Below the pieces are notes generated by a model that did not search any database, was not told where the DNA came from, and was given only the letters and a program-made list of their open reading frames with translations. The position numbers were made by a program, and so were the translations under genes. Positions 3,037 to 19,075 of a stretch of DNA of 23,030 nucleotides are shown piece by piece; position 1 is the first letter of the stretch; every line of letters starts with the position of its first letter. This stretch comes from Planctomycetota bacterium (lineage in GTDB: Bacteria; Planctomycetota; Phycisphaerae; UBA1845): NCBI GenBank assembly GCA_024278775.1, contig JAJRSP010000253.1:1-23030 (forward strand). Reading direction: 5' to 3'.

Positions 3037-6000
3037 TCAGTTGCCGGCGTCGAGTTTCGACGTCAGCCGTTCGACAACGAACTCGGTCGGCAGCTTGACG
3101 GCTTGAACAGCGTCCGTACCCAGGTCGAGGTATTCGACGATCGGACCGTTCGAGTCGGTCGCCATCAGGCGGCCATCCTCAAGAATCGTGATACCACCCA
3201 AACGCGGTCCCGGAATCAGGCCCTCCTGAGTGATCGGATCGTCGATCGTTCCGGCGAACGTCAAGGTCACGCTCAAACCGTCGCCAGCCAACTCCACGCC
3301 GAACTGGCAAATGCCGATGCTCGCGCCATTGTTCGAGCAGGCGACGAAAATGTTCGTCCCGTCGGTCGCGATATCGCCATCGACATCGTCGAAGTCAGTT
3401 TCATCCTTATCCGTGCCGCTCAGCGTCGTAAGGGCAACGGAGAGGCCGCCGCTCGCCGACGGGAACCCGAGCTTGTCCCAGAAGCGGAGCGTATCGTCCA
3501 CCGTATTCAACGCGTACAGGTACCCGCCGATTTCGACCATACCCGTCAGTTCCACATCTCCGTTAAGGCCTGCGATCGACCCGAACGGCGTTACGAAGCC
3601 GCTCTGTCCGATGGACAGGTCCGGATTCACCTTGAACAGCGGATTAGTGACTGTCTGGCAAGCACCGCCAGGCCCCGAGTTGCAACGCTCAGCCGTGACC
3701 CACAACGTGGTGCCGTCGTATGCAATCAACGGATTGGACGAAACCACGGCAGGACACACGGCATCCGGGACTGAGATGCACGTGTTGAGTGGGACGCGGA
3801 ACATCGAAAAGAAGCTCTGCTGAACCTCCAGAATCTTCGTCACCTCGCCCGTAGCCGGATCAAGCTCCAGAATCGGCGGATAACTCGCCGGCGTCGCATC
3901 AGCCGGGTCGTCAAGGAACGGCTCGGTATGGATTGCGTCGATGCCTCTGCGTGCGACGGCGAACACGCGATCATCCATCGAGTCCGCCTGCGGTGTCAAC
4001 CGCGTAATGGCGATATTGTAGTTGCGCGCAATGCTGACATTGGTCTCGAAACGACGCGAAAGCGTGGTACCCGGGAACGCCGCGTCAAACGGCGTATTCT
4101 CAGCCACCTCCATGTTGCCGTTGTCGATGCCCACCATCGCGTAGACAGCCCCCATCGGGTTGCCGGCTCCGGTGAACTGCGGAACCACACTGGCCACGTT
4201 GGCTGCGATTTCGTCCGAAATACTGTCCGTGATGAAAATATTCGTGTCGTGACGCTCAAGCGAATAGTCGTGCTCGGCAAAAATGAAGCCGTCAGCATCG
4301 TAAAGCGCCAGATAGGACCGAACGAAGTTATTCGTGTTGCCCGACGGCGTCGCGTCCGCCACATTCATCGACACGATTTGGCCCGGGCTGGCAGACACCG
4401 AATAGAAATCGACATCACCCTGGAAGCCACCGTAATGTCCGTTGCCCAGAACACGTGTCGTCGGCATCGAACTCGCCAGACTGTCGCCGGGCACGACCGA
4501 CCCAGCCGCATCCGGAATCGAGTCGTTTCCGTCCGGGCCGGCTATTTCGTCTACATCAGCCGAGCCTGTAATGCTCAACGGCTGAGACGACGTCGAAATG
4601 TTCAACCGGTAACATTGCAGCGTGTCGCTGTTCGGAAAAACGTTCGGATTCGGCGGCGTGCGACCCACGATCGGCGGCCCGGGCTTGTTCACGCGACCGC
4701 CGACGAACGGACGCAAGTCCGAATCGTTGGTGGCAGCCACCCGCGTGCCGTGCGGGAAGTTGAGAAGCGTCGGCGGAATCGCCGTCCGCAATGTATCGCC
4801 GTCCTCCTCGAATTGCTGACGGTCCGTCGCGAAAACCGCCAGATAGTACTTGCCGGGATCCAGCGACGGATTCTCGCAGTTCATGGCCGTACTGCCGCAA
4901 ATGTTGGCATTGAACTTGGGCCTCGTCTGATCCAGCGCCCCAAGCTCCTGCGACTGATCGCCCGTCGCGATTAACTCGCCGTCGGACGTGTACAACGCAA
5001 GCACCAGGTCGAACGTGGTCTGGAAACCGCCGCCGGCCAGTCCGCGGATGCTCGCACTCAGGCTGCGAGTGGTTGTCGGGAAATTCCCGCCGCTGAAGTC
5101 GAGAAGATAAAGGTCCATGTCCTGACCGATGTGTGCGAACGCTCCATCGCCGATGGCACCGAATATGATCGTGCTCGGCGCTGCGCCGCGGTCATCTGCC
5201 TGGTCGATCGTATCGTCTGGCTCGTGCTGAAATTCGCGACACGCGAACTGATTCCCGCCGGGGTCCGAGACGGAATTGGGGTCCGTCCTCCACACCGAAA
5301 GCGTGTACGCGCCAGCGTCCCGGCCGTCCGTCAGCGTGCGGATCGTCTCCGGATCGCTGGGGTCGTACCAGATGACCAGATCACAATCGCCCGACGTGCC
5401 GCACTTTCCGTCAGGCCCGAAAACCGACTGGCATTCCTCATCAGACGAGCAGGAAATATCGCACAGGCCGTTGCCGTCGCAGGGTGATTCACACGGGCAG
5501 AATCCGCCGCCGGCGCAGGTGTCCATCGGGTCCGCACATTCGAAATTCGAGTTGCACACCTCGCCGTCGTTGTCGCCGCCCGAACACGTGCCCGCGAAAC
5601 CCTCATTTACGCAGTCCTCACCGGTAACACAAGACGGAGCCTGAAACTTGATAATCTGCTCGGAGGCACTGATGCCGACGTAAAGCGCGTTCGCGCCGGC
5701 CGGAACCTCCACGGTTGTGAATGCGTCCAGGCTGCTTGGTTCATAGTCGTCGGAGATGCCCCCCACACCATTCGCGAACGGAATCTGATTGCCGTTGGCG
5801 TCGAACACGCGAAGGTAGGGATCCCACTTGGAATCGCCCAGCGAATCCCGCGTGCCTTCAACAAGAATGGAAACCACCTCATTGGCGGCGACTCCGCCGA
5901 TTCTGTAGAGGTCCAGATCCTGAAGCTGCACCGGGGGAGGAGGAACCTCGCCCATGCAAAGCACCGGGTCGTTGGGTGTGAAATTCGGCGTGCCCAATCG

Positions 6001-7359
6001 GTCGGTGAAACAGTCAAAGAAAGCATCGTAGTCATCCAGGTCGACACCGTTCGTGTCACCGTCATGCACGAGGCAATCCGCATCATCGCGGCCGAAGCAT
6101 CGCTGGTAGTCCCGCCAGTCGATAAGGTCGACATCGCCGTCCTCATCAACATCGAACAACGGGAAGGGCGTACCCGCACCGATCGGCGTACCATTGTCGC
6201 CGAGATAACCGGCGATCGAAGTCGTGGCCCCGTTGCCTACCGCCGGAGTGACGAGCGTGTCCGCCGTCAAAATCTCGTTGTTACCGTCAGAGTCCGAGAG
6301 TTCATCGCTGTTCGCGCCAATGTACAGGGTTAGTGCGGTTCCGAAAAACGGGCGATCGAGACTGCAAACATTGCCGCCGGTACAAGGCTGCGAGATGAAG
6401 CAAAGCTGGTTCTCCGGCGCATTCTTGGGGTCGGGTGCAATGCAGTCAGCCCCGATTCCGAATGCGTCCACGCATTCGGAATCCAGGTCGCAGAAAACGC
6501 CGGTGTTGCCCAGCGGGGCCCAGCCGTCGTTTTCGCAAAGTTGTGGATATTCCGCCGACGAGCAATTTTCAGTGGCTGCGTTGATGATATGCACGCCGTC
6601 CGCCGTCCCGTTTCCACCGCTGGCCAGCGCGACGCCCGCCTGCGGGGAAGGATCGCCGTCTTCGCAGATGTTGGCGATCTGAGTCAAGCGAACCTGAACG
6701 CCCACCTTGCCTTTGGGAAGCGAGAAAGATGCACGGCCAAAGTTGGTTCCGATCGGCTGATCGACCGGATTCAACTGCTCTTCAACAAGCACGCCGTTTT
6801 CTTCATAAAGGCCGACCAGGTTGTACGTTTGCGCATCGTAATCGACGCTGAAGCGAATGAGACGCGGCGTCCCATCGGGCGCTGTGTACACGGGAAGTCT
6901 CATCAGCGCCGGGCCACCGGCTGTGCGAAACTGCGCACCGGCGATGTTTTGGCCGAAACCCTGTTCGTCGGTCCCCTCCCAGAACGTGATGTCCACATGC
7001 GTGTCGACGTCACCAGAGTTCAAGAGGAACAGGTCAAAGCCCGAAACCGACCCGCCACCGGTCACAAACCAGTCGCGCACAGACAGCGGGCTTGAGGTTG
7101 CCGACGTCCTGCCGCCGACCGGCAGCGCCTGAACCGAAACAGTGCAAATATCCGTGTTGTCATACAGGCGCGGGCAGGTTGGGCAGGAAGAAAGATCCAT
7201 CCCCCCTCCAAGGACCGCTTCCATCGGTGCCGTGGTCATCAGGCGTAATGCCCCCGTTTCACTCGAAACGGTCGAAAAACTATCCTGAGCAGCGGCCGGG
7301 CCGCTCGTCAAAGCGACGAAAACCGCCAAAACTGCCAGGTTCATCCAGAATCTCCGCAT
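3037..7359 (-). CDS. Very large secreted mosaic protein (dockerin-like, PPC-like, Cys-rich, propeller-like)
   Basis: This encodes 1440 residues with a clear signal peptide (about 1-24, ending GPAAAQ). Parts visible in order: a beta-rich N-terminal region with scattered cysteines; about 401-450 a dockerin-like pair of calcium-loop motifs (DVDEDGDVDLIDWRDY and DGDTNGVDLDDYDAF); about 478-565 a PPC-like beta domain (LDLYRIGG...DPYLRVFD); about 575-658 a dense cysteine cluster; about 745-843 and 980-1076 two more PPC-like domains (DMDLYLLDF and GDVDFYSVS); and about 1140-1437 repeats such as LELDPATGEV that look propeller-like. No catalytic motif, PEP-CTERM or LPXTG-like anchor is visible. The ATG follows a strong AGAGGAG site (around 7367-7373). 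It is probably an extracellular adhesive or matrix component (inference). It is a single gene with its own terminator. Confidence 0.9.
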   Translation of the reverse strand: MRRFWMNLAVLAVFVALTSGPAAAQDSFSTVSSETGALRLMTTAPMEAVLGGGMDLSSCPTCPRLYDNTDICTVSVQALPVGGRTSATSSPLSVRDWFVTGGGSVSGFDLFLLNSGDVDTHVDITFWEGTDEQGFGQNIAGAQFRTAGGPALMRLPVYTAPDGTPRLIRFSVDYDAQTYNLVGLYEENGVLVEEQLNPVDQPIGTNFGRASFSLPKGKVGVQVRLTQIANICEDGDPSPQAGVALASGGNGTADGVHIINAATENCSSAEYPQLCENDGWAPLGNTGVFCDLDSECVDAFGIGADCIAPDPKNAPENQLCFISQPCTGGNVCSLDRPFFGTALTLYIGANSDELSDSDGNNEILTADTLVTPAVGNGATTSIAGYLGDNGTPIGAGTPFPLFDVDEDGDVDLIDWRDYQRCFGRDDADCLVHDGDTNGVDLDDYDAFFDCFTDRLGTPNFTPNDPVLCMGEVPPPPVQLQDLDLYRIGGVAANEVVSILVEGTRDSLGDSKWDPYLRVFDANGNQIPFANGVGGISDDYEPSSLDAFTTVEVPAGANALYVGISASEQIIKFQAPSCVTGEDCVNEGFAGTCSGGDNDGEVCNSNFECADPMDTCAGGGFCPCESPCDGNGLCDISCSSDEECQSVFGPDGKCGTSGDCDLVIWYDPSDPETIRTLTDGRDAGAYTLSVWRTDPNSVSDPGGNQFACREFQHEPDDTIDQADDRGAAPSTIIFGAIGDGAFAHIGQDMDLYLLDFSGGNFPTTTRSLSASIRGLAGGGFQTTFDLVLALYTSDGELIATGDQSQELGALDQTRPKFNANICGSTAMNCENPSLDPGKYYLAVFATDRQQFEEDGDTLRTAIPPTLLNFPHGTRVAATNDSDLRPFVGGRVNKPGPPIVGRTPPNPNVFPNSDTLQCYRLNISTSSQPLSITGSADVDEIAGPDGNDSIPDAAGSVVPGDSLASSMPTTRVLGNGHYGGFQGDVDFYSVSASPGQIVSMNVADATPSGNTNNFVRSYLALYDADGFIFAEHDYSLERHDTNIFITDSISDEIAANVASVVPQFTGAGNPMGAVYAMVGIDNGNMEVAENTPFDAAFPGTTLSRRFETNVSIARNYNIAITRLTPQADSMDDRVFAVARRGIDAIHTEPFLDDPADATPASYPPILELDPATGEVTKILEVQQSFFSMFRVPLNTCISVPDAVCPAVVSSNPLIAYDGTTLWVTAERCNSGPGGACQTVTNPLFKVNPDLSIGQSGFVTPFGSIAGLNGDVELTGMVEIGGYLYALNTVDDTLRFWDKLGFPSASGGLSVALTTLSGTDKDETDFDDVDGDIATDGTNIFVACSNNGASIGICQFGVELAGDGLSVTLTFAGTIDDPITQEGLIPGPRLGGITILEDGRLMATDSNGPIVEYLDLGTDAVQAVKLPTEFVVERLTSKLDAGN

Positions 7360-11327: not shown

Positions 11328-11405
11328 AGTGTGATCGCCGTCGGCTGCGCACGTATGTATCGTGGACGAAGTGCTGTAGGGTCGGCACGTGAAGTGTGGA
11401 TGGCG

Positions 11406-11432
11406 TCCGCGCGAACTGAAGTTCGCGGCTCG
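11406..11432 (+). repeat. REP-like palindromic repeat, family A, copy 1
   Basis: The core GCGAACT-GA-AGTTCGC is a 7-bp perfect hairpin. The whole 27-nt unit recurs as an exact reverse complement at 20995-21021, with no identity beyond the ends. It lies 37 bp before the moxR start, so it would be in the moxR leader RNA. Short dispersed hairpins with a RAYT gene nearby fit REP elements. Confidence 0.75.
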
Positions 11433-11469
11433 TTGGTTTGAGTGTGAACCCATAGGAAGGGAGCAGGCG

Positions 11470-12486
11470 ATGGCGGATATTGATCCGAATGTCGAGGCAG
11501 CTACCAAGGAATTTCGGGCCAAGTTCAATCTCGTTCGCGACGAGGTCGGCAAAGCCATCGTGGGGCACGAGGAAATCGTCAACGGCGTGCTGACGGCGCT
11601 GTTCGTGGGCGGGCACGTGTTGCTGGAAGGCGTGCCGGGGCTGGGCAAGACGTATCTGATTCGCTCCTTGGCGGACGCGTTGAGCCTTAATTTTTCGCGT
11701 ATTCAGTTCACGCCCGACCTGATGCCGGCGGACATCATCGGTACGAACATCATCAGCGAAGACCCCGCCTCCGGGAAACGATCGTTTGAGTTTCAGCAGG
11801 GGCCTCTGTTTGCGCAGATGGTTCTGGCGGACGAGATCAACCGGGCGACGCCGAAGACTCAGTCGGCGATGCTGGAGGCGATGCAGGAGCACAGCGTGAC
11901 GGTCGGTCGGTCGCACTTCAAGCTGGAAGAGCCGTTCTTTGTGATGGCCACGCAAAACCCGATCGAGCAGGAGGGCACGTATCCTTTGCCGGAGGCTCAG
12001 CTCGACCGTTTCATGTTCAAGCTCGTCGTGCAGTATTCGTCGCGTGAGGAGATGAAGACCATCATCGATCGCACGACGAGCGGATATAAGCCGGAGATCA
12101 AGCCGGTGATGACGGGTAAGGAGATTTTGGGGGCGCAGCAACTGGTGCGGCGGATTGTGATGGCTCCGCATGTGCAGGATTACGCGGTGCGTTTGACGAT
12201 GGCGACGCATCCGGGTGGGCCTTTCGCGGTGGCGTTCACGAATCAGTATGTGCGTTGGGGTGCGAGTCCTCGGGCTGCTCAGGCGTTGACGTTGGGCGCG
12301 AAGTTGCAGGCGATGCTTGACGGGCGGTTCAACACGAGTTTCAGCGATGTGCAGAAGGTTTTCGTGCCGGCGCTTCGTCATCGTATATTGTTGAACTTTG
12401 AGGGGCAGGCGGAAGGGTTGGACGCGGACGCGGCGTTGAAGGAGATTCTGGACAGGACTCCGACGATGGCGGAGGCGGCGGCGTAG
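11470..12486 (+). CDS. moxR: MoxR-family AAA+ ATPase
   Basis: This encodes 338 residues. Walker A is GVPGLGKT (54-61), Walker B LADEIN (119-124), sensor 1 ATQNP (160-164), and LPEAQLDRF (173-181) is the typical MoxR signature. The C-terminal lid domain follows. MoxR ATPases are chaperone-like and act with VWA-domain partners, consistent with the DUF58 and BatA-like VWA genes downstream. The ATG at 11470 is chosen because the family N-terminus begins there and a GGGAG site lies about 6 nt before it; a 27-codon upstream extension overlaps the repeat at 11406 and is unrelated to the family. It probably heads the cluster to 16589, although the RAYT gene lies between it and DUF58. Confidence 0.95.
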   Translation: MADIDPNVEAATKEFRAKFNLVRDEVGKAIVGHEEIVNGVLTALFVGGHVLLEGVPGLGKTYLIRSLADALSLNFSRIQFTPDLMPADIIGTNIISEDPASGKRSFEFQQGPLFAQMVLADEINRATPKTQSAMLEAMQEHSVTVGRSHFKLEEPFFVMATQNPIEQEGTYPLPEAQLDRFMFKLVVQYSSREEMKTIIDRTTSGYKPEIKPVMTGKEILGAQQLVRRIVMAPHVQDYAVRLTMATHPGGPFAVAFTNQYVRWGASPRAAQALTLGAKLQAMLDGRFNTSFSDVQKVFVPALRHRILLNFEGQAEGLDADAALKEILDRTPTMAEAAA

Positions 12487-12520
12487 TGACGACGGTGAAT
12501 ACTTTCGAGGATTGGGGTTT

Positions 12521-12620
12521 GTCTCAACGTGGAACGGTCTGCTAAACGACAAGTCTTTCTTGAACGTTGTTCGATGTGATCGCGTGTGTATAGCAATTCC
12601 GTGTTGGTTGAGACTTGTCG
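12521..12620. repeat. Inverted repeats upstream of the RAYT gene
   Basis: CGACAAGTCT (12547-12556) is perfectly complementary to AGACTTGTCG (12611-12620). An overlapping GTTGAGAC (12607-12614) is also complementary to GTCTCAAC (12521-12528). One right-hand segment can therefore pair with two left-hand segments. They lie between moxR and the RAYT start, where a transposase or its mobile unit might carry recognition sites. No matching copy was seen on the far side of the gene. Confidence 0.55.
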
Positions 12621-12649
12621 GTTAGCGGGTTGTTCGGAGTAGGCGAAAC

Positions 12650-13255
12650 TTGGTCATCGCGCATCATCTTATATTGACCGGGTATGGGCAGTGGTTGCCT
12701 AACGATCCGCGCGGTTCGACGTCCAAGTCCGTTCGGGCGGGGAAACTGGATCGACTTGGTCCGCTGCACGAGGGTAGAAAAACTGTTCAACCGGACCGCG
12801 AGACGCTGAAGAACTTTTACCGCGATGCGCGAACTCAGTTGGAATATCCCACGATTTGGTTCGATGAGCAGATGCGCGACGCGATTGCGGTCGGCATCCA
12901 TGAAGCGGTTCAAAAGTTCCGATACACGTGTTTCGCGTGTGCTGTTCTTTCCAATCACGCGCACCTCGTGATACGCAAGCACCGCGACCGCGCGGAATCG
13001 ATGGTCGAAAATCTGCATACAGCAACAATCACGCAATTGCGCGCTCGGCAACTCGTCCCGATTGGACACCCTGTGTGGTGCTCGAACCGGTTTAAGCAAT
13101 TCCTGTTCAACGGCGACGATGTACGCCGTACGGTTCGATACGTTCACGACAATTACGGCAAGGAGGGTCTGAGGCCGATTCAACATCCGTTCGTCGCCGC
13201 ATATCGCGGTGAGTGGGAATCGAAGGCTGGTCAAATCGGGCGCGAGGCTGTCTAG
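12650..13255 (+). CDS. rayT: REP-associated tyrosine transposase (RAYT, Y1/HUH)
   Basis: This encodes 201 residues. The N-terminus has GYGQWLPNDPRGS, typical of a RAYT subgroup common in planctomycetes. The HUH metal motif is SNHAHLVI (His103, His105), and the candidate nucleophile is Tyr164 in YVHDNYGKEG near the C-terminus, with Tyr169 as an alternative. Y1 enzymes nick and join single-stranded DNA; RAYTs act on REP hairpins scattered in the genome. All key residues are present, so it could be active. The start is a TTG (12650) following GGAG with good spacing; no ATG or GTG fits the family N-terminus. It lies between moxR and the DUF58 gene, which normally adjoin, so it probably inserted there. 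Two families of REP-like hairpins occur in the window. Confidence 0.9.
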   Translation: MVIAHHLILTGYGQWLPNDPRGSTSKSVRAGKLDRLGPLHEGRKTVQPDRETLKNFYRDARTQLEYPTIWFDEQMRDAIAVGIHEAVQKFRYTCFACAVLSNHAHLVIRKHRDRAESMVENLHTATITQLRARQLVPIGHPVWCSNRFKQFLFNGDDVRRTVRYVHDNYGKEGLRPIQHPFVAAYRGEWESKAGQIGREAV

Positions 13256-13293
13256 TGGTCATGTGGCAACGTCATCCGTAAATTACACCCGTT

Positions 13294-14193
13294 ATGATAC
13301 CAACACCGCAATCCAACGCACCGCTCCTTTCCCCCGAATTCATGGCCAAGCTCGATCAACTCGAGCTTGTCAGCCGGAAGATATTTGCGGGGGCGATGCA
13401 TGGGGAGCGACGCTCCAAACGGCGGGGTGAGTCGGTGGAGTTCGCAGATTATCGCAACTACACCGTGGGGGACGACCTGCGTTTTCTGGACTGGAACATC
13501 CTCGCACGACTGGACAAGCTGTTTCTCAAGCTGTTCCTTCAGGAGGAAGATCTGCACATCAGCCTGCTGCTCGACGTTTCGCGCAGTATGGACTTCGGGC
13601 AGCCGAACAAGGGTGTTTACGCCCGGCAAGTGGCGGCTGCCATCGGGTACATCGGGCTGGTCAATTACGATCGTGTGAGCATCTACCCGTTCGCCGACGG
13701 GCTGGTCTCGGAGATGGCGGGCATGCGCGGGCGGAACGTGACGCGCCGCCTGCTCGATTTCCTGGGATCGCTCGAATTCGACTCGACCAGCAACTTCACG
13801 CTGGCTTGCAAACAATATGCGATTCGCCATCCGCAGCGCGGCATTGTGCTGGTCATTGGCGACTTCTTCGAAAAGGGCGGGTACGAAACGGGCTTCAAGT
13901 ATTTGTTGGGGCGCGATCTGGACCTTTATGCGATTCAACTGCTCTCGCCGGAGGAGATCGATCCGCCGATCACCGGCGACGTGCAGCTTCAGGATATCGA
14001 AGACGCGGACACGGCTGAGGTGACGGTCAGCCGGGCGCTGCTCAAGCGGTACAAGCACAACCTGAGCGCGTATTGTCAGGAGCTGAAGGAATACTGCACG
14101 CGTCGCGGAGTGGCCTATCTGTTTACGAGCACGGAGGTTCCGTTCGATCAGATGGTGCTGGACTATCTCAGGCGGCGGGGGTTGCTAAGATAA
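13294..14193 (+). CDS. DUF58 domain protein of the MoxR/VWA cluster
   Basis: This encodes 299 residues. The DUF58 hallmark GESVEFADYRNYTVGDDLR then LDWN lies at about 45-67, followed by a VWA-like fold with a MIDAS-type DVSRSMD (94-100). The family commonly stands beside moxR and BatA-type VWA genes, where it is thought to be part of a MoxR-dependent assembly. No signal peptide or membrane segment is visible, so it is probably cytoplasmic or bound to the membrane through partners. The ATG at 13294 lacks a clear ribosome site; Met17 is an alternative, but SPEF just before it is family-like. The distance to moxR (807 bp) is unusual and is filled by the RAYT gene. The small gene at 14237 follows 43 bp later. 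Confidence 0.93.
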   Translation: MIPTPQSNAPLLSPEFMAKLDQLELVSRKIFAGAMHGERRSKRRGESVEFADYRNYTVGDDLRFLDWNILARLDKLFLKLFLQEEDLHISLLLDVSRSMDFGQPNKGVYARQVAAAIGYIGLVNYDRVSIYPFADGLVSEMAGMRGRNVTRRLLDFLGSLEFDSTSNFTLACKQYAIRHPQRGIVLVIGDFFEKGGYETGFKYLLGRDLDLYAIQLLSPEEIDPPITGDVQLQDIEDADTAEVTVSRALLKRYKHNLSAYCQELKEYCTRRGVAYLFTSTEVPFDQMVLDYLRRRGLLR

Positions 14194-14236
14194 TACGCGG
14201 GGGGCGTGTACCTGTCGATTTGTGCGGGAGGAAAAA

Positions 14237-14461
14237 ATGACTGTCGAACAACTAACCCAGGTGCAACATGCAAGGCCTTTTCGGCCTTACCGAATCCATT
14301 TGACTGACGGGCGACATCTGGATGTTGTGCATCCCGACTTTGTGGCGCGTTCACCCAAGGGCCGAACTGTTATTGTGTACAAATCCGATGAGTCGTTCGA
14401 GATCATCGATTTGCTGCTTGTCGTCTCGCTGGAAGTGTTGAACGGTCAGGAGCGAGGTTGA
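14237..14461 (+). CDS. Small conserved protein of unknown function
   Basis: This encodes 74 residues starting at the ATG 14237, which follows GGGAGG (14226-14231). The sequence resembles a family of short hypothetical proteins I recall from planctomycete genomes, marked by RPFRPYRIHLTDGRH, then HPDFVARSPKGRT and EIIDLLLVVSLE. It is likely a small beta-barrel or sheet-rich protein. There is no signal peptide and no membrane segment. It lies between DUF58 and the VWA gene, 43 bp after the former and 43 bp before the latter, so it is probably cotranscribed with them. No function is known to me, and placement in the cluster may be incidental. Family recall is from memory and unverified. Confidence 0.8.
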   Translation: MTVEQLTQVQHARPFRPYRIHLTDGRHLDVVHPDFVARSPKGRTVIVYKSDESFEIIDLLLVVSLEVLNGQERG

Positions 14462-14504
14462 GAATCGAATTGGACAGTGCGTGCGCGCTGCGTGAGTGCC
14501 TCTG

Positions 14505-16589
14505 ATGCAGTTCCTTTCACCGGGTGTTTTGGCGATGGCTGCTGCGTTGACGATTCCGCCGCTGGTCGCGCTCTATTTTCTCAAGCTGAAGCGGCAGATA
14601 CACCCGATTTCGTCGACGCTGCTGTGGAGGAAAGCCATTGAAGATTTGCACGTCAACGCGCCGTTTCAGCGGTTGCGCAGCAGTCTGCTGTTGTTGCTGC
14701 AACTGCTCGTGCTGATTCTGGCTGCGTTGGCGTTGGGGCAGCCTCTGCTCGCGCGGAGCAAGCCTTACGAGCAGACGCTTATCCTGATGATCGATCAATC
14801 AGCCTCAATGGGCGTGATCGAAAGCGACGGGCGATCGCGGCTGGAGCATGCCCGCGAGCAGGCCAAGAAGGTCATCGACAACATGGACGAGGAGGCTCGG
14901 GCGATGGTCATCGCTTTTTGTGACCGGGCTACGATGGTGTCATCGTTCGGCACCGATCGCGAAGCCATCAAACGCAGGATCGACACGATCGGGCAGACGG
15001 ACAGCACATCGACGCTGTCGGAAGCGGTTTCTCTGGCTGAAGCGTACTCTCAGAATCTCATCATCGGCGGTGAGACAGCCGGTACGGACATCCCGCCTCA
15101 ATCCGCAGCCGCACCAGCCAGCGTTGTGCTGTTTACGGACGGACGCATCGAGGACGCAGAATCCGTCGCGCCGCAGAGGCTGGACCTGTCGCGGATGGAT
15201 GTGGTGCGCATTGGCAAGCGGTTCGACAACGTCGGCATTTTAACGATGGACGCCCGCCGTAACTACGAAACGCCTGAAGTGCTCCAGGTGTTCGCGACGG
15301 TGCGGAATTTCTCCGACGCGACCATGACTTTCGACGCCACGCTGTACATCAACGGCGAGCATGTGGACGTGCAGACCGTGCGACTCGAACCGGGGGCAAT
15401 GGTCAGAAAATCCGCCGGCGACGGGTTCGGCGATGAAGATTCGGATGCGTCGGTTGCTGCGCAGCAAGTCGTGGCGGACGACCTCGCCCCGCCGAACAGC
15501 GTTGCTTCGGTCGCGTTCGACGAGATTGAATATGTTGACGGCGGGTTGGTGGAGGTGCGGCTGGACGTTGACGATGCGCTGCAGGCTGACAACCGTGCGT
15601 GGACGGTTATCGAGCGTCCGCGTCGCGTGGATGCGCTGCTCGTGACCGACGGGAACCACCTGCTCGAAAAGGTGCTCTCGCATCTGAACGTGTCTGCCAC
15701 CCTGATGACGCCCGACGAATACGAAGCGGCGGATGAGGAGGCGATTACCGAACGCAAGCGGGCCAAGTACGACGTGGTCGTTTTCGATCGCCATTCGACG
15801 GATCGCCTTCCGCCGGGCAACTACATGTTCTGGGGGGCAGCCCCCAAGCTGGAAGGTATCGAGGAACTCGACTGGACCGAGGCTGAAATCATCATCGACT
15901 GGAAGCAGCAGCATCCGGTTTTGCGTCATACGAACGTGGGGTCGGTCAATGTTTTCTCCTGGAAGCGCATGCGACTGCCGGAGGATGCGGTAAGACTGAT
16001 TGAAGGCGAGACGGACGAATCGACCGTGTTGGCCTACTTCACGCGGAACGGCAGTCAATTTCTGGTCAGTGCGTTTCCGCTCTTTGTGGAGGACGCGGAG
16101 AGCGGTACGCTGATTCTCAATACCGACTGGGCGTTGCGTTGGGATTTTGTCACGTTTATGTACGACGCGGTGCAGTTCCTCGCGTCCACGGTGACTACGG
16201 GAACGCTCGCCAGTCTTAGGCCCGGTGAGCCGCAGGTCGTTTCGATTCCGCCGGGTACGAAAAACGTCACCGTGCGGCGGCCGAGTGGCGAGATTGACAT
16301 TGTTCCGTCGGCGGGGGCGTCTGCCATCACGTACGCCCGAACGCGACGTGTCGGCACGTATGAAATCGAGCCGGCGGTGGAGGGTCAGGAAACGCTCGCG
16401 GTGAATCTTCTCAGCGTTTCGGAGAGCAACATCGCCCCGCGCGACACGGTGGTCATCGGGTCGTCGCCCGTCACGACGGGTACGGGTGAGAGCCTGATTA
16501 ACGAGCCGCTTTGGCCTTACGCGGTGATGGTGCTCGTTGTTTTTCTGATGATCGAGTGGGTTGTCTACAACAAACGCGTGTCTGTTTAG
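14505..16589 (+). CDS. BatA-like membrane protein with VWA domain
   Basis: This encodes 694 residues. The N-terminal BatA region has a membrane segment at about 7-27 (LAMAAALTIPPLVALYFL) and the LKLKRQ...SSTLLWR motif, with a second segment at about 59-80. A VWA domain follows with MIDAS DQSASMG (97-103). A long soluble part extends to about 665, and a last hydrophobic segment (YAVMVLVVFLMIEWVVY) lies near the C-terminus. The VWA domain should face the periplasm or envelope side after the second span, but the topology is inferred. BatA-type proteins partner with MoxR and DUF58. The frame opens at a GTG (14496); ATG 14505 (MQFLSP) is chosen because it matches the usual start of this family. 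Neither has a strong ribosome site. Confidence 0.92.
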   Translation: MQFLSPGVLAMAAALTIPPLVALYFLKLKRQIHPISSTLLWRKAIEDLHVNAPFQRLRSSLLLLLQLLVLILAALALGQPLLARSKPYEQTLILMIDQSASMGVIESDGRSRLEHAREQAKKVIDNMDEEARAMVIAFCDRATMVSSFGTDREAIKRRIDTIGQTDSTSTLSEAVSLAEAYSQNLIIGGETAGTDIPPQSAAAPASVVLFTDGRIEDAESVAPQRLDLSRMDVVRIGKRFDNVGILTMDARRNYETPEVLQVFATVRNFSDATMTFDATLYINGEHVDVQTVRLEPGAMVRKSAGDGFGDEDSDASVAAQQVVADDLAPPNSVASVAFDEIEYVDGGLVEVRLDVDDALQADNRAWTVIERPRRVDALLVTDGNHLLEKVLSHLNVSATLMTPDEYEAADEEAITERKRAKYDVVVFDRHSTDRLPPGNYMFWGAAPKLEGIEELDWTEAEIIIDWKQQHPVLRHTNVGSVNVFSWKRMRLPEDAVRLIEGETDESTVLAYFTRNGSQFLVSAFPLFVEDAESGTLILNTDWALRWDFVTFMYDAVQFLASTVTTGTLASLRPGEPQVVSIPPGTKNVTVRRPSGEIDIVPSAGASAITYARTRRVGTYEIEPAVEGQETLAVNLLSVSESNIAPRDTVVIGSSPVTTGTGESLINEPLWPYAVMVLVVFLMIEWVVYNKRVSV

Positions 16590-16711
16590 GCGGCGACGGG
16601 GAATCCCGGTCTAACAGCCGAGTCTTTATAGGCGATTGGTGTCCAGCGGGGACTGGCGAATACCATGCTGATCCGCGGGGTGTTTTCCGTAAACACATTT
16701 GCGGAGGGGGG

Positions 16712-16809: not shown

Positions 16810-17775
16810 ATGGTTGCTACCGTCGAGCGCGTGAATGAACTGATTGAGAAGCGTGATTGGGCTGCGGCGCGCAAGTCGCTTGATGAGGCTGCCCAAGGCA
16901 CGATCGCTGCGGACGAACGCTATTATTACCACGGCGTGATTCTGGAGCGGCAGGGCGAGTGGTCGCAGGCGATCGATGCGTACACGCGGGCGCTCGAGTC
17001 GAATCCGGAAGACGTGGACTCCGCGTTTCGTCTGGCCTACCTGTGTGATCTCCGTGGCGACGACGAGCAGGCGATGGAGCTTTACGAGCAGATTACGGAT
17101 GACGCTCCCGCACACGTTAACGCACTCTTGAACCTGTCCGTGCTTTACGACGACCACGGGCGCTACGCGGATGCTCATTCCTGCATCGATCGCGTTCTGG
17201 AGGAGCACCCGAATCACGCGCGGGCGCGGCTGTTTCGCAAAGACGTTGAGGCGTCGGAGGACATGTTCTACGACGAGGACACCGAGCGCAACCGCGAGAA
17301 GCGCTACGCGATCCTCGAAACGCCGGTTTCCGACTTCGAGCTTTCAGTGCGCAGCCGGAACTGCCTCCGCCAGATGGACATCAACTCGCTCGGTGATCTG
17401 CTTCGGGCCACGCCTTCGGAATTGCTTTCGTACAAGAATTTCGGCGAAACGTCCCTGCACGAAATCGAGAACATGCTGACGCAGAAGGGCCTGCGATTGG
17501 GGCAGCTTCTCGAGGACAAGGGTGAGGACATGTCCCAGTTTACCGTGCCGCCGGGCACGGACCCCAAGGTTGCGAACATTCTGAATCGCAGCGTGTCGGA
17601 ACTGGAGCTGTCCGTGCGCGCCCGAAAATGTCTCATGCGGCTGGGGGTGGCCACCATCGGCGAACTCACGCTGCGCAGCGAATCCGAGATGCTGAGCATC
17701 AAGAATTTCGGCATGACGTCGCTTTCGGAAATCAAAATCCGTCTGACGGAAATGGGCCTTTCGCTCAAGCAGTAG
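16810..17775 (+). CDS. TPR protein with two tandem RNA polymerase alpha-CTD-like domains
   Basis: This encodes 321 residues. About 5-145 is helical with TPR-like units (AIDAYTRALESNPEDVDSAF, then LYEQITDDAPAHVNALLNLS). Two alpha-CTD-like domains follow: 172-234 (LSVRSRNCL...KNFGETSLHEI) and 261-321 (LSVRARKCL...KNFGMTSLSEI). Against E. coli alpha, domain 1 keeps Arg265, Asn268, Cys269, Gly296, Ser299 and Glu302 (here Arg181, Asn184, Cys185, Gly212, Ser215, Glu218). Lys298 is Thr in both, and Asn268 is Lys in domain 2. These residues contact UP-element DNA in alpha, so DNA binding is plausible. No assembly domain of RNA polymerase is present, so it is not rpoA. The ATG follows GAGG (16801-16804). 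A promoter lies 70 bp upstream, and the SpoIID gene 19 bp downstream is probably cotranscribed. Confidence 0.92.
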   Translation: MVATVERVNELIEKRDWAAARKSLDEAAQGTIAADERYYYHGVILERQGEWSQAIDAYTRALESNPEDVDSAFRLAYLCDLRGDDEQAMELYEQITDDAPAHVNALLNLSVLYDDHGRYADAHSCIDRVLEEHPNHARARLFRKDVEASEDMFYDEDTERNREKRYAILETPVSDFELSVRSRNCLRQMDINSLGDLLRATPSELLSYKNFGETSLHEIENMLTQKGLRLGQLLEDKGEDMSQFTVPPGTDPKVANILNRSVSELELSVRARKCLMRLGVATIGELTLRSESEMLSIKNFGMTSLSEIKIRLTEMGLSLKQ

Positions 17776-17794: not shown

Positions 17795-19075
17795 ATGGGC
17801 GGACGTCGGTCACCGATGGGAACGGTGTTTTCGGTAAGTCGCGCCGCGATCTGCATCCTCGCGTTCATCTTTACCGGATGCCAGCAGCCGAACCGGGCAT
17901 CTTCGCCGTCCGTCTCGGGCGATTCCACGCCCGTCGTCGCGCGCGACATCCGTGTGCTGCTGTCCAAGCGTCATGCGAAGTGCCGGGTTGGGTCAGATGG
18001 TCCCTTCACAATCATTAACGAAAACGGTCGCGTTGTGTACCGGGGTAAGTCGGCTGCCGGAGCGGTTGTTTCCGTGGACCGCAACCGGCGCGTTTTGTTC
18101 GGGAAAACCGTGCTGGGGACGGGCTTTTTCGACATCGTTCCGGGGCGTGCAGGCCCGCTGGAATTGTCTTATCCGGTGGAATCGGGGTGGTCGCCCGGGC
18201 GACGATACGGTGGAAAGTTTCGCGTGTCAGCCGGCGACTCGGGCCGCCTTCGTGTCGTAAATTATGTCGATCTGGAAACGTACATTGCGTGCGTGCTGCC
18301 GGCGGAACTGTTCCCGCATTTCGAGACAGAAGCCTATCGAGCACAGGCGATCGCAGCCCGGACGTATGCGCTGTACCAGATGGCTCAGCGGTCGTCGAGA
18401 TCGTACGACGTCGTTGCGACGGAAGCGTCGCAGGTTTATCCGGGCCTGCAAAAGAGCGGGGCGGCTGATCGGGCGCGCGAAGCGACGCGCTACACGCGCG
18501 GGATTGTTGCGACATGGACCTCGCCGACCGGTGAGCAGATTTTCTGTACGTTCTACAGTTCCTGTTGTGGCGGGCGGACGCAGCCCGTGTCGCAATGTCG
18601 GCCTAACTACGTGGAGATTCCCCCGTTAAGCGGCAACGTGCCGTGCAATTGCGGGCGCGTGTCGACCAGTTACCGTTGGAAGCGGGACACGCGCCTGTCC
18701 AAGAGCGAGTTGGCGGGCAAATTGCGCTCGCGGTTTCCCAAGTCGGCGGAACTTGGCGATGTGCGTGCGGTTGAAGTGGCGAGTCGATCGCAATGGGGCA
18801 GGCCTACGCTCCTGCGCATTTACGGCAGCCGTGGAAAGCAACTCGACATGCCGGCTGAGGAGTTTCGCCTCGCCGTCGGCAGTCGCGTCCTGCGCAGCAC
18901 GCAATTTCGAGCGATCGACCGCGGCCGGGATGTGGAATTCGTCGATGGCAGGGGGTTCGGTCACGGGATGGGCCTGTGCCAATGGGGCATGCAGGAAAAA
19001 GCCCTGATCGGCTGGGACGCCTCCGCGATCCTGAAACACTACTACCCAACGATGCACCTGACCCGCGCGTACTGA
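17795..19075 (+). CDS. SpoIID/LytB-type lipoprotein (peptidoglycan-processing family)
   Basis: This encodes 426 residues. The N-terminus is a lipoprotein signal (AAICILAFIFTGCQQ, acceptor Cys29). The SpoIID domain is clear: YVDLETYIACVLPAELFPHF, then EAYRAQAIAARTYALYQMA, then FCTFYSSCCGGRT, and near the end GFGHGMGLCQWGM. SpoIID of Bacillus is a lytic transglycosylase acting on denuded glycan strands, and LytB enhances amidases; the Glu in PAEL is the expected catalytic residue. Zinc-binding cysteines are known in this family, and this protein has several near SSCCGG. A role in peptidoglycan turnover outside the inner membrane is likely. The start is the ATG at 17795; the ATG eight codons on is an alternative, both with weak ribosome sites. 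It lies 19 bp after the alpha-CTD gene and converges with the glycosyltransferase gene. Confidence 0.93.
   Translation: MGGRRSPMGTVFSVSRAAICILAFIFTGCQQPNRASSPSVSGDSTPVVARDIRVLLSKRHAKCRVGSDGPFTIINENGRVVYRGKSAAGAVVSVDRNRRVLFGKTVLGTGFFDIVPGRAGPLELSYPVESGWSPGRRYGGKFRVSAGDSGRLRVVNYVDLETYIACVLPAELFPHFETEAYRAQAIAARTYALYQMAQRSSRSYDVVATEASQVYPGLQKSGAADRAREATRYTRGIVATWTSPTGEQIFCTFYSSCCGGRTQPVSQCRPNYVEIPPLSGNVPCNCGRVSTSYRWKRDTRLSKSELAGKLRSRFPKSAELGDVRAVEVASRSQWGRPTLLRIYGSRGKQLDMPAEEFRLAVGSRVLRSTQFRAIDRGRDVEFVDGRGFGHGMGLCQWGMQEKALIGWDASAILKHYYPTMHLTRAY

What the first reader, a model, noticed from the sequence alone, without database searches (positions are those of the whole stretch)
16810..17775. Tandem alpha-CTD domains fused to TPR: candidate transcription factor mimicking RNA polymerase alpha
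Two alpha-CTD-like domains sit on a TPR module with no polymerase assembly domain. The first keeps nearly all UP-element contacts of E. coli alpha (Arg265, Asn268, Cys269, Gly296, Ser299, Glu302 equivalents); the second has Lys for Asn268, and both have Thr for Lys298. Two spaced DNA-binding units plus a protein-binding TPR suggest a factor that binds AT-rich promoter DNA or competes with polymerase alpha. I know of no described function.
Basis: partly seen in the sequence, partly recalled or inferred. Interest (0 to 1): 0.75.

Follow-up and report, generated by a model that had tools for sequence, protein, structure and literature searches.

The report
Phylum-wide stand-alone polymerase alpha-tail protein
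Nearly every sampled bacterium of the phylum Planctomycetota carries a gene for a protein that joins a protein-binding repeat module to copies of the DNA-gripping tail of RNA polymerase; the first copy has changed less than the tail of the polymerase itself, which suggests an unstudied core gene regulator.

Summary
Window 16810-17775 (+) encodes a 321-residue protein: about four TPR repeats, a conserved linker, then two RNA-polymerase alpha-CTD domains, with no alpha-NTD detected. A full-length profile finds it at E<=1e-60 in 287 of 292 Planctomycetota genomes. In the same 28 genomes CTD1 is more conserved than RpoA's own CTD (mean identity 0.75 vs 0.57; higher in 374 of 378 genome pairs), and all seven 265-determinant positions are fixed in CTD1 (30/30). 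CTD2 is more diverged: position 268 is Lys/Arg in 21/24, and CTD2 is missing in five genomes, one Kuenenia-like. Thr298 is not a loss, because these genomes' RpoA has it too (28/28). The gene heads a ruvA-ruvB-queH-spoIID-tgt string: ruvA, spoIID or tgt follows within 900 bases in 58 of 68 loci, spoIID in this window. Best explanation, inferred: a core factor that grips minor-groove DNA, probably upstream of promoters beside sigma, through CTD1, while the TPR holds an unknown partner. DNA binding, partner and effect on transcription are untested. Nine paper searches listed no description of it.

The parts
16810..17775 (+). TPR / alpha-CTD / alpha-CTD protein, 321 aa, ATG start to stop
   Evidence: homologues of similar length and start
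16810..17259 (+). TPR module, residues 1-150, about four helix pairs plus a capping helix
17260..17310 (+). Conserved helical linker, residues 151-167 (M152, Y154, D155, E156, E159 invariant in the 26 sequences of A1)
   Evidence: in the wider set A2 M152, D155, E156 are invariant in 26 of 26
17311..17511 (+). CTD1, residues 168-234; R181 N184 C185 G212 T214 S215 E218 correspond to E. coli 265, 268, 269, 296, 298, 299, 302
17512..17577 (+). Probably flexible inter-CTD linker, residues 235-256
   Evidence: pLDDT below 50 at residues 238-243 and in residues 88-99 of the CTD-only model
17578..17772 (+). CTD2, residues 257-321; R270 K273 C274 G301 T303 S304 E307
17795..19075 (+). SpoIID-domain protein directly downstream (gap 19 bases), read as a remnant of the conserved downstream gene string
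   Evidence: Pfam SpoIID E=7.3e-22; same neighbour in relatives

Best explanation
It is a core, chromosomal, mostly single-copy Planctomycetota factor made by detaching the alpha-CTD of RNA polymerase from the polymerase and putting it on a TPR scaffold, with an internal duplication. Shown: the domain make-up, the folds by prediction, phylum-wide retention, constraint on CTD1 above that on RpoA's own CTD, fixation of the 265-determinant in CTD1, drift of CTD2 to a basic 268 and its absence in five genomes, and a conserved gene-string position. Inferred, in order: (1) CTD1 inserts the R265-type arginine (R181 here) into the minor groove of A/T-rich DNA as alpha-CTD does; (2) because the acidic 259/261 pair (the sigma region 4 contact of E. 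coli alpha; recalled) is kept in CTD1, it can sit beside sigma just upstream of the -35 element, acting as an alpha-CTD supplied in trans; (3) CTD2 adds a looser, more basic second DNA grip on a flexible tether; (4) the TPR holds a conserved partner, an RNA polymerase subunit, a sigma factor or a regulator, so that the protein tunes initiation at many promoters.
Against: No DNA-binding, RNAP-binding or expression evidence exists here. CTD1 has Glu at 297 (30/30), where RpoA of the same genomes has Lys, Gln or Arg and E. coli has Lys: a charge change next to the DNA face. Many conserved alpha-CTD residues may be kept for the fold. The gene neighbours (ruvA, ruvB, queH, spoIID, tgt, yajC) are not transcription genes. 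The pTM of the full model is 0.49, so the placing of the domains is unknown. Five genomes lack CTD2, so two DNA grips are not required everywhere. Three of 292 genomes gave no family protein (G032, G109, G235).
Confidence: 0.48

Rival explanations
1. Competitor or brake: the free CTDs occupy UP-like DNA, or the alpha-CTD-binding faces of activators, and so keep polymerase alpha away; the TPR controls when.
For: Same DNA-contact residues as alpha but no assembly domain detected, so CTD1 should not be built into polymerase.
Against: Kept in 287 of 292 genomes with very strong constraint, more than a decoy would seem to need; the activator-contacting position 287 is not conserved in CTD1 (commonest residue Ala in 14 of 30).
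Confidence: 0.15
2. Recombination or repair factor: the gene travels with ruvA and ruvB, and the CTDs bind DNA near Holliday junctions or stalled polymerases while the TPR recruits RuvAB.
For: ruvA follows within 900 bases on the same strand in 40 of 68 loci; ruvA-ruvB-queH-spoIID-tgt follow in that order in L088-L092 and in many of the added loci; RuvA also carries helix-hairpin-helix domains (Pfam HHH_5).
Against: The string also holds unrelated housekeeping genes, and where ruvA is not there the gene can still head the string (spoIID first in 13, tgt first in 5 of 68); ruvC lies elsewhere in 12 of 12 genomes checked. Order may be inherited without function.
Confidence: 0.12
3. Protein-only adaptor: the alpha-CTD folds serve as protein-docking modules (for sigma, activators, ribosome or NusA-like factors) and the DNA face is kept for fold or partner reasons.
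For: alpha-CTDs also bind proteins such as Spx (1z3e matched); E297 and M273 are typical of CTD1 (30/30 and 29/30) but not of RpoA (0 and 4 of 28); the linker is strongly conserved.
Against: R265 and E302 are retained even in diverged CTD2 (24/24 each) while its overall identity falls to 0.526, and 268 changes to basic residues, as for nucleic acid contact.
Confidence: 0.17

Closest known systems
C-terminal domain of RNA polymerase alpha (RpoA alpha-CTD, PF03118)
   Same: Fold and DNA-contact residues of both domains; Thr298 as in the RpoA of the same genomes.
   Different: No alpha-NTD detected, so it should not enter the polymerase core; tandem; CTD1-typical R267, M273, E297; CTD2 mostly basic at 268.
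Small alpha-CTD-like proteins (NCBIfam NF005841, PRK07758, 'hypothetical protein')
   Same: alpha-CTD outside polymerase; matched at E=1.1e-10, below cut-off (41.7 vs 115 bits).
   Different: Model of 95 positions, no TPR, no tandem; function unknown.
SARP-type activators such as AfsR (PMC10936776; only the title and start of abstract seen)
   Same: A TPR domain in a protein that acts at promoters; its complex with polymerase was matched through the alpha-CTD chain (8hvr_K).
   Different: AfsR activates through its SARP domain; the protein here contains alpha-CTDs itself.

Membership tests
alpha-CTD domain family (PF03118) | Score above the curated cut-off (23.8 bits) | tested here: met
   135.9 bits for the protein in two stretches; each domain alone matches solved alpha-CTDs
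alpha-CTD domain family (PF03118) | alpha-CTD fold | tested here: met
alpha-CTD domain family (PF03118) | 265-determinant residues for UP-element DNA (list from the finding and recall) | tested here: met
   CTD1 has all but K298 (Thr, as in local RpoA), fixed in 30/30; CTD2 differs at 268 in 24/24
alpha-CTD domain family (PF03118) | Actual binding to A/T-rich DNA | not testable with these tools
   Needs gel shift or ChIP-seq
RNA polymerase alpha subunit (RpoA) | N-terminal assembly domain and RpoA equivalog score | tested here: not met
   No alpha-NTD family among the 25 best of 30 Pfam hits; best equivalog 139.4 of 302 bits
TPR proteins | TPR repeats and fold | tested here: met
RuvAB-linked recombination proteins | Physical or functional link to RuvAB | tested here: inconclusive
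   Gene neighbourhood only: ruvA within 900 bases downstream in 40 of 68 loci

The most novel reading that the evidence does not exclude
Planctomycetota run transcription with a detached alpha-CTD: a near-universal, possibly essential factor that supplies extra alpha-CTDs in trans to sigma and upstream promoter DNA, more constrained than polymerase's own alpha-CTD, so that part of the polymerase's promoter recognition has moved to a separate TPR protein.
Probability: 0.33. Interest if true: 0.85.

Novelty: new variant of a known kind. Interest (0 to 1): 0.66.

Why it matters
Promoter recognition in Planctomycetota, which include the anammox bacteria, is poorly known (own knowledge). A protein found in 287 of 292 sampled genomes, whose alpha-CTD changes less than that of RpoA in the same cells, is a prime candidate for an overlooked general transcription factor, and gives a single gene to tag, delete and footprint. 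Sources name it a TPR protein or an RNA polymerase alpha C-terminal domain-containing protein, and many entries simply 'DNA-directed RNA polymerase subunit alpha', which hides it. It would also matter if it turned out to link transcription with RuvAB repair.

Tried and rejected
Loss of DNA binding through Lys298 to Thr: rejected, since RpoA of the same genomes has Thr (28/28). Mobile gene: 82 plasmid and 17 phage records match part of it, none with a place covering 80%; of the 8 rows shown for each, those with an annotation are named RNA polymerase alpha. Lineage-specific oddity: rejected. The whole-protein fold search showed only TPR-type hits, because the TPR fills the list; a CTD-only model was therefore made. 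Promoter scan around the gene: 2 promoter-like and 4 terminator-like sites against means of 0.8 and 2.4 in shuffles; nothing to build on. ruvC and yebC as neighbours: both lie elsewhere in 12 of 12 genomes (positions). Nine answered paper searches listed no study of this protein, judged by titles and starts of abstracts; searches listed none at all, one search showed 20 of 482 and 20 of 29. PMC10632474 (P. limnophila essential genes) and PMC8567305 (T. immobilis proteome) were seen only as passages; the word searches there gave no mention; supplements were not readable. Spread outside Planctomycetota was not fully tested: only the best 120 hits of each of three protein searches were seen, most without names, some names cut off.

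Full report
WHAT IS THERE. Window 16810-17775 on the + strand is an open frame of 321 codons plus stop. Pfam gives RNA_pol_A_CTD (E=3.7e-40, two stretches) and TPR families. NCBIfam's RpoA models stay far below their cut-offs (139.4 of 302 bits at best), with best stretches in their C-terminal parts. CTD1 (residues 168-234) and CTD2 (257-321) each match solved alpha-CTDs. The ATG at 16810 agrees with relatives of similar length; an in-frame TTG at 16699 exists but is not needed.

HOW WIDESPREAD. PF03118 occurs in 292 of 292 sampled genomes of the phylum of G001 (a Phycisphaerae MAG). By my hand tally 244 have exactly three matches, 37 more, 11 fewer: one in RpoA plus two here is the norm where I looked at the loci. 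A full-length family profile gives E<=1e-60 in 287 of 292. Of the other five, G155 and G130 have what looks like the gene cut by a contig end, and in G032, G235 and G109 it was not found; these may be incomplete assemblies. Names include Brocadia, Kuenenia and Scalindua. Relatives come in a short form (about 320 aa), a long form with extra N-terminal repeats (mostly 435-465 aa) and the single-CTD form (about 370-380 aa).

CONSTRAINT. CTD1, CTD2 and RpoA's CTD were compared in the same genomes. Mean pairwise identity: CTD1 0.753 and RpoA 0.568 in 28 genomes; CTD1 0.766, RpoA 0.575, CTD2 0.526 in the 22 genomes with all three. CTD1 is the more conserved in 374 of 378 genome pairs, with one tie; pairs are not independent, and the genomes were ones whose alpha-CTDs ranked high or that had few matches. 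In CTD1 (30 sequences with the window), R265, N268, C269, G296, T298, S299 and E302 are each 30/30; R267 is 29/30, M273 29/30 and E297 30/30, which sets CTD1 apart from most RpoA (R267 in 5, M273 in 4, E297 in 0 of 28). In CTD2 (24 sequences), R265 and E302 are 24/24, G296 and T298 23/24, S299 22/24, while 268 is Arg 12, Lys 9, other 3. In RpoA T298 is 28/28. In a tree of about 63 columns the 30 CTD1s form one group (support 0.95) and the 24 CTD2s another (0.80); the join of the two has only 0.39, so the duplication is placed before the spread of the phylum but its root is not settled. Five genomes (G171, G081, G203, G221, G268; L088-L092) have CTD1 only, and G160 (L054) has a decayed CTD2. 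On this tree single CTD is loss. CTD1 is the part that is always there in the complete genes seen.

GENE ORDER. In L088 the order is this gene, ruvA, ruvB, queH, spoIID, tgt, yajC (Pfam), then a long ORF that I read as secD/secF from its sequence (not profiled); L089-L092 have the same clusters in the same order. In 70 loci (30 with the window from the first rounds and 40 more that I picked down the list), 68 had enough downstream DNA. Within 900 bases downstream on the same strand the first of the profiled genes is ruvA in 40, spoIID in 13 including the window, and tgt in 5: 58 of 68. Among the 40 added loci it is 22, 6 and 5: 33 of 40. Ten loci do not fit: L045 (ruvA convergent), L060 (ruvA at 901 bases), L172 (ruvA at 2067), and L061, L163, L164, L166, L174, L176, L187 (none of the profiled genes seen downstream). 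Many loci come from related genomes, so these are not independent events. The pattern is that intermediate genes drop out while this gene stays at the head; the SpoIID gene at 17795-19075 in the window is the remaining neighbour. In other phyla a like string begins with yebC and ruvC (recalled, no call); in 12 of 12 genomes checked here those two lie elsewhere.

HOW IT MOST LIKELY WORKS. Shown: domains, predicted folds, spread, constraint, gene position. Inferred: CTD1 binds minor-groove DNA as alpha-CTD does. The acidic 259/261 pair that touches sigma in E. coli (recalled) is kept in CTD1 (259 D or E 30/30, 261 E 29/30), where RpoA of the same genomes varies at 259, so a seat beside sigma at promoters is plausible. 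CTD2, on a flexible tether, may add a less specific grip. The TPR and the invariant linker residues point to a conserved partner, which I cannot name. I put about one half on this reading. A brake on polymerase, a RuvAB-linked repair role and a protein-only adaptor share most of the rest.

AGAINST IT. Glu at 297 in CTD1 replaces a basic or neutral residue next to the DNA face; conserved alpha-CTD positions may be kept for fold; the neighbours are not transcription genes; there is no experiment.

LITERATURE. Nine answered searches of the held library listed no work on the protein, judged by titles and starts of abstracts. In PMC10632474 (passages) the four RNAP core subunits are essential in P. 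limnophila; the main text has no occurrence of 'TPR', 'tetratricopeptide' or 'rpoA'. PMC8567305 (passages) has none either. Most subscription papers are not covered.

VERDICT. New variant of a known kind: known domains in a phylum-wide arrangement for which I found no study. Interest 0.66.

Noticed in passing
window 11389-16586: MoxR AAA ATPase, DUF58 protein and BatA/VWA protein in a row (with a 201-aa ORF without a Pfam hit at 12650-13252 between), just upstream of the gene.
   Followed up: no
window 3037-7359 (-): A 1440-aa ORF with no Pfam match at 1e-5.
   Followed up: no
G220:C138:42643, G257:C1:4695196, G110:C4:337088, G271:C184:1304: Some Planctomycetota have extra short ORFs (113-141 aa) with a strong alpha-CTD match; several also have long ORFs (583-1503 aa) with one to three weaker alpha-CTD-like stretches.
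   Followed up: no
L045, L047, L049, L055, L058, L059, L060, L094, L177: A MurA gene lies upstream on the opposite strand of the TPR/alpha-CTD gene in these loci (Pfam for L045).
   Followed up: partly
G109:C9:37158-37337: A 176-aa ORF with a weak alpha-CTD match in one of three genomes where the family protein was not found.
   Followed up: no
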